DNA of 64,000 nucleotides, from the NCBI GenBank assembly GCA_944326545.1, contig CALVEH010000006.1, positions 62,001-126,000 of the forward strand. Direction: 5' to 3'. This DNA comes from Candidatus Gastranaerophilales bacterium. Lineage in GTDB: Bacteria; Cyanobacteriota; Vampirovibrionia; Gastranaerophilales; Gastranaerophilaceae. A program made the translations under genes and the position numbers. Below the pieces are notes generated by a model, which ran no database searches, was not told the origin of the DNA, and saw only the letters and a program-made list of their open reading frames with translations. Of this stretch, positions 1,668 to 57,390 are shown in pieces (the first letter of the stretch is position 1; the number at the start of each line of letters is the position of its first letter).

Positions 1668-1952
1668 TTAGTGAGTAAGTTTATTAGTAATTTTTGAAAA
1701 ACTATCATTTTTAAAGCTTTGATTTTTTTTATTGAGCAACTCTTGTAACATATCCACAGAATTTTGGGTTACATCTTTGCTTGTTATATTGCTATTTTTT
1801 ATTTCTTTATACAACTCTTCACGATAGACTGTGACATTTTTAGGAGCATTCACGCCTATTCTTACTGTATTTTGATTTGTATCTAAAACTATTATTTCTA
1901 TATCATCATTTAATATTATTTTTTCGCCAACTTTTCTTGCTAATACTAGCAT
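1668..1952 (-). CDS. csrA: Carbon storage regulator CsrA (extended C-terminus)
   Basis: Residues 1-60 are a typical CsrA: MLVLARKVGEKI start, the IxIxVL strand, the RIGVNAPKNVTVYREELY region with the conserved arginine and the VYREE helix. CsrA dimers bind GGA-containing hairpins near ribosome-binding sites and repress or stabilise mRNAs. In Gram-positive and deep-branching flagellates FliW antagonises CsrA, and fliW lies immediately upstream here. The protein is 94 residues, about 30 longer than usual, with a polar Asn/Lys/Ser-rich tail. FliW binding in other bacteria uses a CsrA C-terminal extension, so the tail may be functional. GGAG lies 6 bases before the start. Confidence 0.95.
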   Translation of the reverse strand: MLVLARKVGEKIILNDDIEIIVLDTNQNTVRIGVNAPKNVTVYREELYKEIKNSNITSKDVTQNSVDMLQELLNKKNQSFKNDSFSKITNKLTH

Positions 1953-1977
1953 TTAATTCTCCAATCCCTTTATTAGG

Positions 1978-2412
1978 TTATTCTTTTTCTTTAAATAATG
2001 GATATTTTACCTGATAGTTTGAGTTTGACAGTATAATTTGCATGCCTTGCTTGTTTGTTGCGTTTATTATTATTGGGGCAAGTAAATTAACTGTTGCTTT
2101 CTTAGGATTTATCGATGGTATTGTTACTATATTTACGGATATCAATGATTCTACAGACGTTAAATCAATTTTTTCTGCTTTTTCTGTTGGGATTTCAAAT
2201 TGGTAATCTATATCAAAAAAAGCTGGTGATGTCACAGGAAAAGCTAATTCCGGTGCATCTATTGATTGTAACCATTTGAAAGCTGATTGCTCATTGTGTT
2301 CGATAAATACGTATTTTCTAAATTTATCGTATCCAATAATAGGTTCTACAAAATCAAATATTAGATTGTCATCTATTTCGATTGTTCCAAATCTAGTTGT
2401 TTCTATATTCAT
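1978..2412 (-). CDS. fliW: Flagellar assembly factor FliW
   Basis: A 144-residue protein matching FliW: an N-terminal TTRFGTIEIDDNLIFDF strand, FxWLQSxDxPELAFPVTSP in the middle and the ATVNLLAPIIIN motif late. In Bacillus-type systems FliW binds newly made flagellin and, when free, binds CsrA allosterically to relieve repression of flagellin translation. The fliW-csrA order with a 25-base gap supports an operon. No fli, flg or mot genes occur in this window, so its partner here could be a true flagellin elsewhere or the flagellin-shaped proteins at 53.4-57.4 kb. The ribosome-binding site is weak. Confidence 0.93.
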   Translation of the reverse strand: MNIETTRFGTIEIDDNLIFDFVEPIIGYDKFRKYVFIEHNEQSAFKWLQSIDAPELAFPVTSPAFFDIDYQFEIPTEKAEKIDLTSVESLISVNIVTIPSINPKKATVNLLAPIIINATNKQGMQIILSNSNYQVKYPLFKEKE

Positions 2413-27252: not shown

Positions 27253-27558
27253 TTATGCATTCAAGTTCAACGTAAAGTCTTTCTTAACGTTAGTATCTAA
27301 GATTTTCTGCATACTTTCTAATTCTGATGTTGCAGCTTTTTGCTGAGTTTCCAAGTTCTTTTGTTGCAATTCAAGGTATGAATCCATTGCCTGCAATTGT
27401 TTTACTCTTGGGTCATTTTCCCAGTCTACATCAGCCAATTGCATTGTTTGATATGCAATTTGTTGCCTTTTATTACTGATAGATGTAATGCTGAACTCTA
27501 AGTTGCTTTTATACAACGTCAAAGTTAACAATCTTGTGTTAATAGCCCCTATAGTCAT
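27253..27558 (-). CDS. Short helical member of the MGMAASQ family
   Basis: 101 residues, nearly all helical. It aligns with the 107-residue protein at 57.1 kb: an N-terminal (N/S)xRLLxLxLYKxxLEF helix, then WENDPRVKQLQAMDSYLELQQKNLE against SDDPMVKKLEARKERLNVMEKKLD. It ends LESMQKILDTNVKKDFT against the KVIDKNIEETFKTF ending of the long paralogs. It has AAGGAG 6 bases before the ATG and stands alone. The two-helix coiled-coil layout resembles needle, ESAT-6 or flagellin end-domain proteins in shape only. No signal peptide, so any export would need a specialised route. Confidence 0.7.
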   Translation of the reverse strand: MTIGAINTRLLTLTLYKSNLEFSITSISNKRQQIAYQTMQLADVDWENDPRVKQLQAMDSYLELQQKNLETQQKAATSELESMQKILDTNVKKDFTLNLNA

Positions 27559-49283: not shown

Positions 49284-49320
49284 ATATAGTGTCACTGTTA
49301 TATGTCTTTTGGAGTGCTAT

Positions 49321-50133
49321 ATGGACGTTGCCGGAATAACCTATTCTTTCAGTCAGAAAGTAACAAAGAGTGCTAAAGCAAGTAGTTATGTCAGCTATGA
49401 AAATAGCGATTTGTTTAAAAATAATTACAGCGATAGTAATATTAACATTAATGATAAATCAGCTGAATATATATTAAAATTAGCACCTCTTGCTGATACT
49501 GCAAGTAAAATGATTGACAATGTTAATATATTGAGCAAATTGGGAGCAAATGAGCTTACTACAATCGCTTTAAAGGCTTCTTCAAGTGCAAACACCATAA
49601 TTTCATCTTTAAAAGCTTCTATTGGCAATTATGCATCTCAAATAACGTCTATTTTGAATAATCCTTTTTTAACTGACTCAGAAAGAGAAAATCAAATAGA
49701 GTTAATTGAAGCTAAAATTAAAGCACTTGTCGACGAAGGAAAAACTAAAATAACTACGTTGTTTTCAATTTCGGAAATAGTTGTAAGTCTTTCTTCTACA
49801 GTGTCAGGTCTTAAAAATACAGGATTTGATACAAGTTCATTTGTTTTAGATTTTCAAAAACTTCTTGCAAATGTTAACACAAAACCACCAGACTTGTCTG
49901 AAGTAAAAAACAAGTCTGATATTAACGACATTATTAAAGCTAATGAAAAAACATTCTTAGGTACTGATTCGCAACAAACAATTCAAAATTTAATTACCGA
50001 AACCGATAAAAAAATCAAAGAAAATGAAGAAAAGCTAAAGAATAAAGCTATTTCACCTGACGAGAAAAAGCGTCTTGAATTAGAGCTTGTTTTATATCGA
50101 AGTGAAAACAATTTACTTAAAATGCTTTCGTAG
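49321..50133 (+). CDS. Helical Ser/Lys-rich protein with a sigma-28-like promoter
   Basis: 270 residues from the ATG at 49321 (GGAG 6 bases before). Long amphipathic helices: YILKLAPLADTASKMIDNVNILS near 45-70, then IALKASSSANTIISSL and SEREN QIELIEAKIKALVDE as heptad stretches. A C-terminal coiled coil (KKIKENEEKLKNKAISPDEKK) ends the protein. There is no signal peptide, membrane span or enzyme motif. The composition is like flagellar rod, cap or hook-associated coiled-coil proteins, but homology is not recognised. The promoter links it with the 53-55 kb genes. Confidence 0.65.
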   Translation: MDVAGITYSFSQKVTKSAKASSYVSYENSDLFKNNYSDSNININDKSAEYILKLAPLADTASKMIDNVNILSKLGANELTTIALKASSSANTIISSLKASIGNYASQITSILNNPFLTDSERENQIELIEAKIKALVDEGKTKITTLFSISEIVVSLSSTVSGLKNTGFDTSSFVLDFQKLLANVNTKPPDLSEVKNKSDINDIIKANEKTFLGTDSQQTIQNLITETDKKIKENEEKLKNKAISPDEKKRLELELVLYRSENNLLKMLS

Positions 50134-53302: not shown

Positions 53303-53330
53303 TAAAGTTTTAACACAAGTCTGCCGATTA
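53303..53330 (+). promoter_or_regulatory. Sigma-28-like promoter of the first long paralog
   Basis: TAAAGTTT (53303-53310), 12-base spacer, GCCGATTA (53323-53330). The sigma-28/SigD consensus is TAAAGTTT-N11-GCCGATAA, so this is 15 of 16 with one extra spacer base. AAGGAG and the ATG follow at 53369. Confidence 0.7.
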
Positions 53331-53368: not shown

Positions 53369-54379
53369 ATGGGAATGGCAGCATCACAAGCCAGATACCT
53401 AGGCTTGACAGCTAGAAAAACCAACGTTGAATATGAAGGTCAACAAGTTAACCAACAAAGAACTGCATTGGCTAACCAAAGTGCTGGCTTATTCAACCAA
53501 ATGTTAGCACTCGATGTGCCAACTCCTCCTAATGCTACTGATTATACAAAAACAGAATATGTTTTCACAGATAATTCAACTAGTGAAAAATACACAATAG
53601 ACAGCATTTATAAAAATCCAACTCCAGACGAAAATGGAGATTATCATTACACAATTTCTACTTATAGAAACAGAACAGATATTCTTTCAAACAGAACCGA
53701 AATCAAAGGTACTGGTGATGGTTCAAGCAGATTTACTATTTCTAAAGATGAAAATGATAAATATACTATTAGAATTGGTAACAATCCTGCAAAAACACTT
53801 ATTGAGCCACAAAAATATTCAGCATTAACAACTAAATTTCAAGATGCTGACGAAAACAATGTTGATAATATTACTGACGAAACAACATTCTTTAAGTTTA
53901 CTGACGGAAGCGTAGAATATTATATTCCTACAACACCTGAGGTTCAAACTCTTGAAGACTTATTGAATTACAACGGTAATTTATCAATGTATACTGCTGA
54001 AGGTATTGCTAAAAGTGAATATACAACTTTTAACGATGCAATACTTACTCAAGCAGGTGATGGCACTGGAAGATTTGAATCAGTAACTTTCACTAACGAA
54101 AATGGCGATACAATCACTTGTAAGTTAACTCAACAAACAACTCAAGATGATGAAGCATACGATGCAGCGATGGAAACATATACAGCTAAAAAAGCTATAT
54201 ACGAAAAAACAGTTGCTGATATCAACGCACAAACAACAATTATTCAACAACAAGATAAAACTCTTGAATTGCACCTTGATCAACTTGATACAGAACAACA
54301 AGCAATTCAAACAGAAATGGACGCAGTTAAAAAGGTAATCGATAAAAACATAGAAGAAACATTCAAAACATTTGCATAA
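53369..54379 (+). CDS. Long member of the MGMAASQ family (flagellin-like layout)
   Basis: 336 residues. Residues 1-50 (MGMAASQARYLGLTARK, VEYEGQQVNQQRTALAN) are almost identical to the gene at 54614. Residues 55-265 are a beta-rich, Thr/Asn/Asp-rich variable part. Residues 265-336 form a coiled coil (VADINAQT, LDQLDTEQQAIQTEMDAVKK) ending VIDKNIEETFKTFA. Conserved helical ends around a variable middle is the arrangement of flagellin, although no flagellin motifs are present. No signal peptide. AAGGAG precedes the start, and a sigma-28-like promoter lies 40 bases further up. Family not recognised; a filament-forming or secreted structural protein is proposed. Confidence 0.75.
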   Translation: MGMAASQARYLGLTARKTNVEYEGQQVNQQRTALANQSAGLFNQMLALDVPTPPNATDYTKTEYVFTDNSTSEKYTIDSIYKNPTPDENGDYHYTISTYRNRTDILSNRTEIKGTGDGSSRFTISKDENDKYTIRIGNNPAKTLIEPQKYSALTTKFQDADENNVDNITDETTFFKFTDGSVEYYIPTTPEVQTLEDLLNYNGNLSMYTAEGIAKSEYTTFNDAILTQAGDGTGRFESVTFTNENGDTITCKLTQQTTQDDEAYDAAMETYTAKKAIYEKTVADINAQTTIIQQQDKTLELHLDQLDTEQQAIQTEMDAVKKVIDKNIEETFKTFA

Positions 54380-54392
54380 TACTCCAATTTTT

Positions 54393-54440
54393 AACCGGCT
54401 TTTTATAAGTCTGCTTGAAAATAGAAAGCCGGTTTTTATT
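54393..54440 (+). terminator. Terminator after the first long paralog
   Basis: AACCGGCTTT / AAAGCCGGTT with a long loop, then TTTATT. Confidence 0.8.
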
Positions 54441-54542
54441 TAAAAATTGAGTACATCAAACAGAGGATTTTTCTTTTAAGAGGCTTTAAAAAGAGTAATA
54501 TAAGCATTTATAATTGAATTAATAAAACTTAATATAAAATGC

Positions 54543-54570
54543 TAAAGTTATGACAAATCGAGAAAGATAA
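54543..54570 (+). promoter_or_regulatory. Sigma-28-like promoter of the second long paralog
   Basis: TAAAGTTA, 12-base spacer, AAAGATAA: same spacing as the site at 53303, weaker -10 (5 of 8 to GCCGATAA). Confidence 0.45.
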
Positions 54571-54613
54571 TTAATATTTAATGGTTAGTAGGTAAACACG
54601 GAGACACTATTAT

Positions 54614-55585
54614 ATGGGCATGGCAGCATCACAGGCTAGGTATTTAGGTATAACAGCCAGAAAAATAAACGTTGAGTACGAAGGACAACAAGTTAACCAA
54701 CAAAGAACAGCGTTAGCTAACGAAAGCGCAGGCTTATTTAGAAGACTTTTAGAATTAACAGTACCAACACCACCGGCTCAAACGGAATACTATACTGATG
54801 TTTATCAATATAGTGATCCAATGGCTTCTGACGGTAAAGTTACTTTATCTTCTATAACAGAAAACGATGGTTCTGATCCTAAAACATATACTGTAATAAC
54901 TAAGTACAAAGAAGATGTACCTCAATACGGAGTTTCTTCTGATCAGTCAGTTTATGTTCAAAGCTCTGCTGAAAGCAATAAAATCTATTTAAGCAATGGT
55001 AATAGTTATCAGCTTTCAAATTCAATTACAAACCTTCCAGAATCATTAAGAAAAGAATTTGATTCTAAAACATCTTATACAAACGATGCTGATGACCAGT
55101 ATTATATGTTTACTAATACAGCAACTAAAACAACATTCTATATCAACGCAACCAAGACTGGTTTTGATATAACTAAACAAGGTAGCCAGAATGTTGATTT
55201 ACTAACTGTTACAACAGTTGAACAAGAAAAATCTAAAACTATTAGCAATGCAACTATGGGTACATCTTCATCAGGTTTGTATAACTCAATTAGTTGGACT
55301 GATGAAAATGGTAATACTGTATCATATGATCTTTCTTCAGCTCAAGAGTATGACGAACAAGCTTATAATGAAGCAATGGATCAATACAACGTTGATAAAG
55401 CAAATTACGAAAAAGAAGTTGCTGATATCAACGCTAAAACAGAAGAGCTGCAAGAAACAGACAGAACTCTTGAATTAAGACTAAAACAACTTGATACTGA
55501 GCAAGAAGCATTGCAAACAGAACTTGATTCAGTTAAGAAAGTTATTGATAAAAACGTTGAAAATGTATTTAAAACATTTCAATAA
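54614..55585 (+). CDS. Second long member of the MGMAASQ family
   Basis: 323 residues. The first 50 residues match the protein at 53369 at nearly every position (ITARKINVEYEGQQVNQQRT; variation in the Leu/Arg cluster that follows). The middle (about 55-250) is a different Thr/Ser/Asn-rich beta region. The last 75 residues align closely again: NYEKEVADINAKTEELQE and LDTEQEALQTELDSVKKVI, ending DKNVENVFKTFQ. This is a duplicate in which the centre has diverged. GGAG precedes the ATG by 11 bases. It leads into the glycine-rich gene, 29 bases downstream. Confidence 0.75.
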   Translation: MGMAASQARYLGITARKINVEYEGQQVNQQRTALANESAGLFRRLLELTVPTPPAQTEYYTDVYQYSDPMASDGKVTLSSITENDGSDPKTYTVITKYKEDVPQYGVSSDQSVYVQSSAESNKIYLSNGNSYQLSNSITNLPESLRKEFDSKTSYTNDADDQYYMFTNTATKTTFYINATKTGFDITKQGSQNVDLLTVTTVEQEKSKTISNATMGTSSSGLYNSISWTDENGNTVSYDLSSAQEYDEQAYNEAMDQYNVDKANYEKEVADINAKTEELQETDRTLELRLKQLDTEQEALQTELDSVKKVIDKNVENVFKTFQ

Positions 55586-55614
55586 TTAGATAAGTAGAAA
55601 TATGTGAGGCCAAA

Positions 55615-56442
55615 ATGTCTTATAAAAACGATGGATATCTTGTAATAGCAAATAAATTTGGTAAAGCCAGCTCTGATGCTAAAGCACAACTTTTTGAAAC
55701 TTATGATAAATTGAGAGATTTAACCGTAAGTGGTTCAGCATTAGATGGTGCAGGTTTTGGTACCGCAGGCAGCTTCTTATGGCAAATTGCAAGATTAATT
55801 TCACCAAGTGCTTTTATGCCTATAATGGGTGGTAACACTATGATGAATATCCCAGGTACATCTTATTGGTCTCCAATTAGCGGTGGTAACGCTATTTTAG
55901 ATAGCGGTAGTGCAGCTTTTGGTATCACAGGTTTAGGTAACTACCCCGGTTTTCCTAGCGGTGCGGCTCCAGTTGCTTGGGGATTTGGTATGGACACAAG
56001 TTACTCCGACGGTTCAATTACTGGTGGTGCATCAGGGTTATATTCAGCGAGCAGTATTGGAGGTTCAGTTGGTCTTAACGCTGCTGCATACGGTGCAGGG
56101 GTAGCCTCAGGCTTTGGAGTTCCTGGTACTAGTTGGGTATTACCTGCCGCAGGTATAGTTTCAGGTTTTGCAGGTGTAGTTCAAGCTATGGCACCTTATA
56201 TGGGTGGTTTTGGTCTTGGTGCAACAGTTCTTGGTAACTTATTACAAGGTACTTCTTCTGCTGGGTTAGCAGCATATCAAAACATATCTGGCAGCATACT
56301 ATCTAACGCTGACACTATTTTGTCTAACAAAGTAAGAAACATTGAAACGGTTGTAAAAATGCTTGATACCCAAGGTGATATTGTTAAGAAAATGCTTAAA
56401 GATTCTATCGAGGGTGATAGCAAACAAGTACAAAATATGTAA
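55615..56442 (+). CDS. Glycine-rich hydrophobic protein in the MGMAASQ cluster
   Basis: 275 residues, family not recognised. A short helical N-terminus (DAKAQLFETYDKLRDLT) precedes a long Gly/Ser/Ala-rich section with alternating hydrophobic residues (about 45-225; e.g. GGNAILDSGSAAFGITGLG). Hydrophobic Ala/Gly helices (AAGIVSGFAGVVQAMAPYMG) follow, and a helical C-terminus (VRNIETVVKMLDTQGDIVKKML) ends the protein. No signal peptide. The pattern of hydrophobic middle and helical ends recalls secretion-system translocators or tip proteins, in layout only. GAGG lies upstream. Co-transcribed with the second long paralog. Confidence 0.65.
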   Translation: MSYKNDGYLVIANKFGKASSDAKAQLFETYDKLRDLTVSGSALDGAGFGTAGSFLWQIARLISPSAFMPIMGGNTMMNIPGTSYWSPISGGNAILDSGSAAFGITGLGNYPGFPSGAAPVAWGFGMDTSYSDGSITGGASGLYSASSIGGSVGLNAAAYGAGVASGFGVPGTSWVLPAAGIVSGFAGVVQAMAPYMGGFGLGATVLGNLLQGTSSAGLAAYQNISGSILSNADTILSNKVRNIETVVKMLDTQGDIVKKMLKDSIEGDSKQVQNM

Positions 56443-56455
56443 ATTTAGGGATTGT

Positions 56456-56680
56456 ATGACAGATAGAACTTATATTAGAACCATAAATGAATTTGTTTTT
56501 GATAAGACAATTATATTTTCCATAATAAAGAAAATTGTTAATTTTTATTACAATATATTCAGCTTTCATCCGAATATATTTAAGAAAAAAGAAAAAATGT
56601 CGATTAATATAACAGAGCACAAAAACTGCTTAGCTATGTTAAAAGCTGCGGTTGACAGTAATATAAACCTTACTTATTAA
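56456..56680 (+). CDS. Small basic helical protein
   Basis: 74 residues from the ATG at 56456, with AGGGA 4-5 bases before it. One moderately hydrophobic, aromatic-rich stretch (IIFSIIKKIVNFYYNIFSF) is followed by a basic run (FKKKEKM) and a polar end. It follows the glycine-rich gene by 13 bases. Coding status rests on the ribosome site and position; no family seen. Confidence 0.5.
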   Translation: MTDRTYIRTINEFVFDKTIIFSIIKKIVNFYYNIFSFHPNIFKKKEKMSINITEHKNCLAMLKAAVDSNINLTY

Positions 56681-56769
56681 GAAATATTACAAAAATTTTT
56701 CTACGAGGCAATATTATTGTGTGTTTAGTTTTTATTGTTATGTAGGTCCAAGTGGACAAGGAGTCAACA

Positions 56770-57042
56770 TTGTTTCAAGATGCTTTAATGACAAACTTGC
56801 AAAAAATAGTTAACTTCTTTGGTTACTTGATGTCTTATTTAAAAAGACATAATCCGCTGCAAATCTTTTTGGCACAGATTACTACAATGGTGAAGGACTA
56901 CTTGACTATGAACAGAAAACTGAAAATGGCCAAGTACAGAGTAAATTATCAAATGTATAAATTGAACCAAATGGAACAGTTGATTGCCGAAAACAATGAG
57001 CACGTTTTCTTGAGAGGAAATAAGCTCAATCTTCAAAGATAA
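56770..57042 (+). CDS. Small amphipathic helical protein (TTG start)
   Basis: 90 residues from TTG at 56770, where AAGGAG lies exactly 6 bases upstream. A GTG at 56752 would add 6 residues and overlap that site. The product has hydrophobic helices (LQKIVNFFGYLMSYL; IFLAQITTMVKDYL) and then basic helices (RKLKMAKYRVNYQMYKLNQMEQLI). It lies 24 bases before the short MGMAxSQ member, so they form one unit. It could be a chaperone-like partner. Unknown family. Confidence 0.6.
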   Translation: MFQDALMTNLQKIVNFFGYLMSYLKRHNPLQIFLAQITTMVKDYLTMNRKLKMAKYRVNYQMYKLNQMEQLIAENNEHVFLRGNKLNLQR

Positions 57043-57066
57043 AAACTAGACAAGGGTGGTCCTATT

Positions 57067-57390
57067 ATGGGCATGGCGACATCACAACTAAGATTAATGT
57101 ATTTGAATGCTTACAGGCTTGATCTGGAGTATAAAATACAGTTGATAACTGAGGCAAAGATGAATTTGTCAAAGACTTGTACTGACCTTATTAACGTTGG
57201 TACAGACTTAGATTCTGATGACCCTATGGTTAAAAAACTCGAGGCTCGTAAAGAACGTTTGAATGTAATGGAAAAGAAACTCGATATGCAAATGCAGCAA
57301 TATCAGAACAAATTAAAGATGATTGATACAGAATACTCATCTTGTGAATCTATGCTACAAAAGAATATCGAGCGATCTTTCAAATACTAG
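57067..57390 (+). CDS. Short member of the MGMAASQ family
   Basis: 107 residues: MGMATSQLRLMYLNAYRLDLEYK at the start (split: MGMATSQLRLM and LDLEYK), then a turn at SDDPMVKKLE, and a coiled coil ending CESMLQKNIERSFKY. It is the family's helices without the variable middle and aligns well with the protein at 27253. GGTGG precedes the ATG. The product is all-helical, about needle- or ESAT-6-sized. No signal peptide. It ends 9 bases before the convergent htrA-type gene. Confidence 0.7.
   Translation: MGMATSQLRLMYLNAYRLDLEYKIQLITEAKMNLSKTCTDLINVGTDLDSDDPMVKKLEARKERLNVMEKKLDMQMQQYQNKLKMIDTEYSSCESMLQKNIERSFKY

What the first reader, a model, noticed from the sequence alone, without database searches (positions are those of the whole stretch)
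53369..57390. A cluster of flagellin-shaped paralogs with a glycine-rich partner: candidate undescribed surface assembly
Two long proteins share near-identical N-terminal 50 residues and similar C-terminal 75-residue coiled coils but have unrelated beta-rich middles. A third, short protein has essentially only these helices, and between them lie a glycine-rich hydrophobic protein and two small helical proteins. Conserved helical ends with a variable insert is how flagellin-type filaments are built, yet no flagellin motif is present and none of the proteins has a Sec signal. Duplication with divergence of only the centre suggests an exposed surface under selection. I infer a secreted filament, needle or adhesin-like assembly.
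Basis: partly seen in the sequence, partly recalled or inferred. Interest (0 to 1): 0.8.

Follow-up and report, generated by a model that had tools for sequence, protein, structure and literature searches.

The report
Subunits of a flagellin-free flagellum-like machine
These genes belong to a large, undescribed protein family that seems to be exported by a second, flagellum-like secretion machine present in nearly all examined gut relatives of cyanobacteria (Gastranaerophilales), including the many that have no flagella, where published work has read the machine's genes as leftovers of a lost flagellum.

Summary
The cluster is real. Two long proteins (336 and 323 aa) share terminal helices with a 107-aa helical hairpin; the long forms are that hairpin with a beta-rich domain inserted at its loop. 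No Pfam, NCBIfam, PHROG or PDB family matches. In 386 genomes of the phylum the family (3-17 copies per genome) occurs in 174: every Gastranaerophilales genome plus one sister-family genome. Flagellin occurs in only 57 of these. A second, complete flagellum-type type III export apparatus, separate from the flagellar one, is in 170 of the 174. The single-copy glycine-rich partner is in 169 and nowhere else in the phylum. In several genera the whole cluster sits directly beside this apparatus on the same strand. Family genes carry sigma-28 (FliA) promoters, and FliA is retained in a flagellin-less genome. That genome has rod and hook-like genes but no flagellin, ring, hook-associated or FliG genes. 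Best reading: the family and the glycine-rich protein are late exported axial or surface subunits of a flagellin-free, flagellum-derived machine. Export and polymerisation are inferred, not shown. Published surveys counted these genes as flagella or flagellar remnants.

The parts
53303..53330 (+). sigma-28 (FliA)-type promoter TAAAGTTT-N12-GCCGATTA before gene A
   Evidence: 11 of 12 consensus bases, 66 bp upstream of the ATG; conserved before orthologues in other genera
53369..54379 (+). Gene A: long family member, 336 aa
   Evidence: no Pfam/NCBIfam/PHROG match
54395..54439 (+). Terminator-like inverted repeat CCGGCTTT...AAAGCCGG followed by T-run, after A
   Evidence: read directly from sequence; loop too long for the automatic scan
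54543..54570 (+). weak sigma-28-like site before gene B (TAAA-N16-AAAGATAA, 9 of 12)
   Evidence: read directly; too weak to claim alone
54614..55585 (+). Gene B: long family member, 323 aa; N helix, beta domain, C helix
   Evidence: AlphaFold2 model pLDDT 88, pTM 0.52; alignment A5 of 43 sequences
55615..56442 (+). Glycine-rich hydrophobic partner, 275 aa, single copy per genome
   Evidence: in 169 of 174 family-bearing genomes and none other in the phylum; directly 3' of a long member in 78 of 80 loci
56456..56680 (+). 74-aa small protein, conserved in close relatives, not seen beyond them
56752..57042 (+). 96-aa small helical protein (90 aa in other genera)
   Evidence: alignment A4; preceded by sigma-28-type sites in other genera
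57067..57390 (+). Short family member, 107 aa: helix - acidic proline loop (DSDDP; DPDSP in relatives) - helix hairpin
   Evidence: alignment A7 of 26 short members
27253..27558 (-).
   Evidence: 24% identity to the 107-aa member, conserved C-terminal pattern

Best explanation
The cluster encodes late exported substrates of a second, flagellum-derived type III export apparatus that works without flagellin. Shown by sequence: the basic unit is a ~108-aa helical hairpin, and the long proteins are this hairpin with a beta-rich domain inserted at the loop. A complete export apparatus separate from the flagellar one is present (FlhA/SctV, FlhB/SctU, FliP/Q/R/O, FliI/SctN, FliH/SctL, FliF/SctJ, a FliM/N-type C-ring protein, FliE), with FlgB/C/F/G rod proteins, a FlgE/F/G-like protein, FliJ-like and FliK-like proteins in a flagellin-less relative. 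Inferred: FliA transcribes family genes late; the proteins leave through this apparatus by a flagellar-type route without a Sec signal; the paired terminal helices pack as a D0-like core into a thin axial structure (needle, filament or tip), short forms making the core and long forms displaying variable beta domains. The glycine-rich hydrophobic protein may be a membrane-contacting or tip component, and the small 96-aa helical protein an export chaperone or accessory.
For: Distribution: family in 174 of 386 phylum genomes, all of f1-f3 plus f5; SctV2 orthologue in 170 of the 174 (about 79% identity or more in the f1-f3 genomes listed, 64% in f5); glycine-rich protein in 169 and 0 elsewhere; flagellin in only 57 of the 174. 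Three of the four genomes without SctV2 also lack the glycine-rich gene (G085, G240, G388), and in relatives of two of these the genes are unlinked. Linkage: in genera g2, g4, g6, g8, g10 and g11 the cluster [long member - glycine-rich - 90 aa - 108 aa] sits just upstream of FliE-FliF-X333-FliH-FlhA. Two full apparatuses; FlhB is 2 copies in flagellated and 1 in flagellin-less genomes. Regulation: sigma-28 sites >=11/12 before 22.6% of family genes against 1.2% of controls, also in flagellin-less genomes; FliA above its cut-off in G034. Anatomy: residues 1-36 and 54-108 of an ancestral-looking short form align to residues 1-36 and 268-322 of B at 64% and 55%; model of B.
Against: No experiment shows export or polymerisation. 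Co-occurrence rests on few independent events because both traits are inherited through one clade. In the own genus the cluster is not linked to the apparatus. G188 keeps the glycine-rich gene but lacks SctV2 in its assembly, and G104 and G378 the reverse. Strong sigma-28 sites precede only a minority of members. No sequence match to any needle, hook or flagellin, and the Foldseek resemblance to flagellin is weak. The glycine-rich model is unusable (pLDDT 41). Some short members in the sister family f5 lie near true flagellar genes, so export through the flagellum there is possible.
Confidence: 0.6

Rival explanations
1. The proteins are exported by the second apparatus but are effectors, adhesins or translocators, not polymer subunits. 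The conserved helices are a secretion and chaperone-binding module, and the variable middle is the working domain.
For: Copy number of up to 17 and inserts of very different size (members of 108 to 762 aa) suit a repertoire of cargo; the hydrophobic glycine-rich partner could be a translocator.
Against: Both ends are conserved, not the N-terminus alone. The ancestral-looking forms are almost only the two helices, so they have no cargo domain.
Confidence: 0.2
2. The proteins are cytoplasmic coiled-coil accessory proteins (chaperones, adaptors) of the second apparatus and are never exported.
For: Short charged coiled coils resemble export chaperones and FliJ-like proteins; one short member weakly hits the FliS co-chaperone model (E 0.0018).
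Against: Most family genes are long with a beta-rich insert that varies quickly between species, unusual for chaperones; 8 to 15 paralogues per genome are more than chaperones need.
Confidence: 0.12
3. The second apparatus is only a decaying remnant of a lost flagellum, as the literature reads it, and the family is an unrelated surface or regulatory family that shares the FliA regulon.
For: Di Rienzi et al. 2013 (PMC3787301) and Soo et al. 2014 (PMC4040986) interpret partial flagellar gene sets as loss of flagella.
Against: SctV2 is about 79% identical or more across the listed genomes of the order and intact in nearly all. Flagellated genomes carry both apparatuses at only 39% FlhA identity, so the second is not a leftover of the first. 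The gene set and FliA are kept in a flagellin-less genome.
Confidence: 0.08

Closest known systems
Bacterial flagellum (rod/hook/filament exported by FlhAB-FliPQR)
   Same: Same export gate, ATPase, MS-ring, FliE, FlgB/C/F/G rod genes, FlgE/F/G-like, FliK-like and FliJ genes, and FliA sigma factor
   Different: No flagellin, FlgK, FlgL, FlgH, FlgI, FlgA, FlgN or FliG in the flagellin-less genome read (about 88% of it); the family and glycine-rich protein occupy the late-gene position
Non-flagellar type III secretion system (injectisome), and the secretin-less Myxococcales type (Abby and Rocha 2012, PMC3459982)
   Same: All eight shared core components; derived from a flagellum; candidate small helical hairpin subunits of needle size
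   Different: Keeps FliE, FlgB and FlgC, which the published definition excludes; no SctF/SctI needle match; no secretin identified (not searched systematically); FlhA2 is nearer FlhA than SctV by NCBIfam score
Flagellin (PF00669) and needle protein SctF
   Same: Conserved N- and C-terminal helices with a variable central insert; short forms are helical hairpins with a proline-containing loop, as in SctF (resemblance recalled, not tested by alignment)
   Different: No profile match; fold resemblance to flagellar filaments weak
Partial 'flagellar gene sets' of Melainabacteria (Di Rienzi 2013; Soo 2014)
   Same: The 13 shared genes listed in 2013 (flgG x2, flgC, fliF, fliH, flhA x2, fliI, flgE, fliP, fliQ, fliR, flhB) match the second apparatus by name
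   Different: There read as flagella or flagellum loss; here shown to be a second apparatus that coexists with a separate flagellar one

Membership tests
Non-flagellar T3SS as defined by Abby and Rocha 2012 | at least 7 of the 8 core genes sctJ,N,Q,R,S,T,U,V | tested here: met
   all eight in flagellin-less G034 and in the own genome
Non-flagellar T3SS as defined by Abby and Rocha 2012 | absence of the flagellum-specific genes flgB, flgC and fliE | tested here: not met
   FliE (PF02049, 1.1e-17), FlgB and FlgC present
Non-flagellar T3SS as defined by Abby and Rocha 2012 | secretin (sctC) | not tested
   no secretin seen in loci read; a 120-aa protein in the FliPQR operon only weakly resembles the pilus/T3SS N-domain (E 0.036)
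Bacterial flagellum | export apparatus plus rod | tested here: met
Bacterial flagellum | flagellin | tested here: not met
   absent from 117 of the 174 genomes with the family; no hit in G034
Bacterial flagellum | L and P rings, FlgK, FlgL and FliG | tested here: not met
   no hit to own-genome homologues in the 1.56 Mb (88%) of G034 that was read
Flagellin (PF00669) | Flagellin_N profile match | tested here: not met
   no match in A or B although five true flagellins exist in the genome
SctF/MxiH needle family | sequence profile match of short members | tested here: not met
   no match among 26 short members or in PDB profile search
SctF/MxiH needle family | helical hairpin that polymerises into a needle | not testable with these tools
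   hairpin inferred from alignment A7; no multimer prediction or experiment available
FliA (sigma-28) regulon | TAAA-N15/16-GCCGATAA promoter and a FliA sigma factor | tested here: met
   22.6% of members >=11/12 against 1.2% of controls; FliA TIGR02479 247.9 bits against cut-off 189.6; strong sites for a minority of members only

The most novel reading that the evidence does not exclude
Gastranaerophilales build an extracellular filament or needle that is neither flagellum, injectisome needle nor pilus: a flagellum-type basal body and rod topped by a polymer of this helical-hairpin family, decorated with variable beta domains, in an order of animal-gut bacteria most of which have no flagellin.
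Probability: 0.4. Interest if true: 0.92.

Novelty: new variant of a known kind. Interest (0 to 1): 0.78.

Why it matters
A whole order of gut-dwelling cyanobacterial relatives appears to keep a dedicated, conserved export machine that has been read as decayed flagella. If the family is its extracellular part, it is a new class of type III-exported filament or needle with a variable surface facing animal hosts. It would also be a natural intermediate between flagella and injectisomes, keeping the rod but not the flagellin, which bears on how secretion systems arose from flagella and makes that question testable in living bacteria.

Tried and rejected
Considered and rejected: (1) phase-variable or shufflon cassette, suggested by identical C-terminal fragments at pairs of contig ends; reading them fits near-identical 3' ends of two paralogues that break assembly, with no recombinase seen. 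(2) Phage origin: no PHROG match; the only 'phage' hit, Microcystis phage MaAM05, carries secF, secDF, scpA/B and smc and is a mislabelled bacterial contig. (3) Plasmid origin: no match. (4) Dependence on flagella: excluded by 117 flagellin-less genomes. (5) Positive selection on the middle: not seen. (6) Homology to PDB proteins by profile: none credible for shorts, longs or the glycine-rich protein. (7) Known domains in the inserts of larger members: none. Led nowhere: AlphaFold2 of the glycine-rich protein (pLDDT 41); viral fold search gave PA14/phage-tail-like beta hits with low TM-scores; the last 11-12% of genome G034 could not be fetched.

Full report
What is there. The window is part of a Gastranaerophilales (non-photosynthetic Cyanobacteria, class Vampirovibrionia / Melainabacteria) genome of 2.19 Mb; a 97%-identical orthologue lies in a contig labelled Candidatus Gastranaerophilales. 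A and B are 84% identical over 50 N-terminal residues, 60% at the C-terminus and 26% in the middle. B is modelled with good confidence as N helix, beta domain and C helix. None of the proteins matches a family in Pfam, NCBIfam or PHROGs, and profiles of the long, short and glycine-rich proteins find no credible PDB relative.

What the family is. An N-terminal 50-residue profile finds it in 174 of 386 genomes of the phylum: all members of the order (families f1-f3) and one genome of the sister family f5, and in no other genome of the sample. Copy number is mostly 3 to 17 per genome. In f5 nearly all members are about 109 aa, and an ancestral-looking short protein from a mislabelled record aligns to the two ends of B at 64% and 55% with B's beta domain inserted between them. 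So the unit is a helical hairpin with an acidic proline loop (DPDSP-like), and the long proteins are hairpins with an insert at the loop.

The second export apparatus. The genomes of the own genus carry two full-length FlhA/SctV proteins plus a C-domain-only paralogue (with a few gaps in less complete assemblies). One belongs to a flagellar system with FliF-I, FlgF-L and flagellins. The other (39% identical) lies in an operon FliF - 333-aa protein - FliH - FlhA - FliI, with a second FliMN-like - FliO-P-Q-R operon elsewhere and a second FlhB. Across the phylum sample, SctV2 orthologues are present in 170 of the 174 genomes with the family (64% identity in f5), while families f4 and f6, which lack the family, have only 46-47% identical homologues. 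The glycine-rich partner is single-copy, in 169 of the 174 and in no other genome. Flagellin is in only 57 of the 174 (counted from the table).

Linkage. In 78 of 80 loci a long member lies directly before the glycine-rich gene; the other two are cut by contig ends. In genera g2, g4, g6, g8, g10 and g11 the cluster [long member - glycine-rich - 90 aa - 108 aa - divergent 220 aa] is followed within a few genes by FliE - FliF - X333 - FliH - FlhA on the same strand. Those loci were picked because both genes lay on one contig; in an unpicked set of loci with 10 kb downstream (L212-L228) nine of twelve show it. In g20, g25 and f3 the SctV2 operon carries FliE, a FlgJ-like gene, FlgC, FlgB and two FlgF/G-like rod genes. 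Of four genomes without SctV2, three also lack the glycine-rich gene; G085 keeps only a fragment of SctV2's C-domain. In relatives of G240 and G388 the two genes are on different contigs, so those two joint absences are not easily one assembly gap.

A flagellin-less genome read almost whole. Of G034 (genus g2), 1.56 of 1.76 Mb was read. It holds all eight core export genes, FliE, FliO, FlgB/C/F/G, a FlgE/F/G-type 278-aa protein (TIGR03506 above cut-off), FliJ-like and FliK-like proteins and FliA (TIGR02479 247.9 against 189.6 bits, a few kb from the rod operon), and eight family members of 108 to 762 aa. It has no detectable FliG, FlgA, FlgH, FlgI, FlgK, FlgL, FlgN, flagellin, CsrA or FliW. 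The 13 'flagellar' genes that Di Rienzi et al. list as shared by four Melainabacteria match this set by name; they explained missing filament, cap, junction and rings in MEL.A1 by genome reduction (PMC3787301), and Soo et al. [quoted passage not shown] No paper found describes a separate type III system here.

Regulation. A TAAAGTTT-N12-GCCGATTA site lies 66 bp before A. Sites with at least 11 of 12 consensus bases precede 22.6% of 217 family genes and 1.2% of 1420 control genes, at a fairly constant distance. Of 35 strong sites in the loci then held, most precede family genes or the 90-aa gene. In confirmed flagellin-less genomes sites of at least 10 of 12 precede 10 of 29 family genes (1.2 expected from shuffles) and 4 of 8 of the 90-aa genes (0.1 expected). 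In G034 as a whole such sites are not exclusive to the family.

How it most likely works. In flagella the FliA-dependent genes are the late, exported ones; that is established knowledge. By position and regulation the family takes that place here. The short hairpin has the size of needle and rod subunits, and the conserved two-ended helices with a variable insert repeat the flagellin design. The mechanism proposed is export through FlhA2/FliPQR and packing of the terminal helices into a thin axial structure, the long members exposing beta domains. Export and assembly are inferred. dN/dS is 0.026, 0.133 and 0.073 for N, middle and C regions, so the middle is relaxed but not positively selected.

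Against known systems. By the published definition this is not a non-flagellar T3SS, because FliE, FlgB and FlgC are present; nor is it a complete flagellum, because flagellin, junction proteins, rings and FliG are missing. It is best called a flagellum-derived, flagellin-free type III apparatus with its own exported family: a new variant of a known kind. That its outer part is a new kind of filament is not excluded (probability about 0.4).

Caveats. Co-occurrence rests on one clade and few losses. The sample is mostly metagenome-assembled genomes. Foldseek's top PDB hits for B are flagellar filaments but with E 1e-3 and TM 0.16. The glycine-rich protein's structure is unknown. The literature library lacks most subscription papers.

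Noticed in passing
L338 (MW495066.1, 124602-140925): GenBank 'Microcystis phage MaAM05' (273,876 bp) looks like a mislabelled bacterial contig (secF, secDF, acpS, scpA/B, smc) from a Vampirovibrionia-like bacterium; it carries the ancestral cluster short member - glycine-rich - 96 aa.
   Followed up: yes
window 1668-2412, minus strand: CsrA and FliW pair, known regulators of flagellin translation; no hit in the part read of flagellin-less G034, so it probably tracks the true flagellum.
   Followed up: partly
G000 C2:257929-258993 (L059:9567-11027): A third FHIPEP homologue with only the cytoplasmic C-domain, conserved in nearly all of the genus and beyond; a possible soluble docking or regulatory paralogue of FlhA.
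   Followed up: no
L036:7671-8225, L039:248-820, L042:3774-4334, L070:14173-14760: An EF-hand protein of about 185 aa lies beside one family member type in every copy seen; possibly another exported partner.
   Followed up: no
G000 C2 end / C4 end, G006 C12/C44, G019 C39/C40: Two paralogues per genome share near-identical 3' ends that break assemblies, hinting at gene conversion between family members.
   Followed up: partly
window 49309-50133: 274-aa protein with a weak FlxA-like match (E 0.0032) near the cluster; no homologue found in G034.
   Followed up: partly
L057:8356 and L057:8414-9667: A perfect sigma-28-type site precedes an HD-domain (HD_5) gene just upstream of the second apparatus operon in the own genome; a homologue exists in G034 (C3:172664).
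   Followed up: no
L239 (G099, f4), L241 (G376, f6): Sister families f4 and f6 have a FlhA/SctV 46-47% identical to the second apparatus and no family members; f4 lacks flagellin, so it may have yet another flagellin-free type III apparatus.
   Followed up: no
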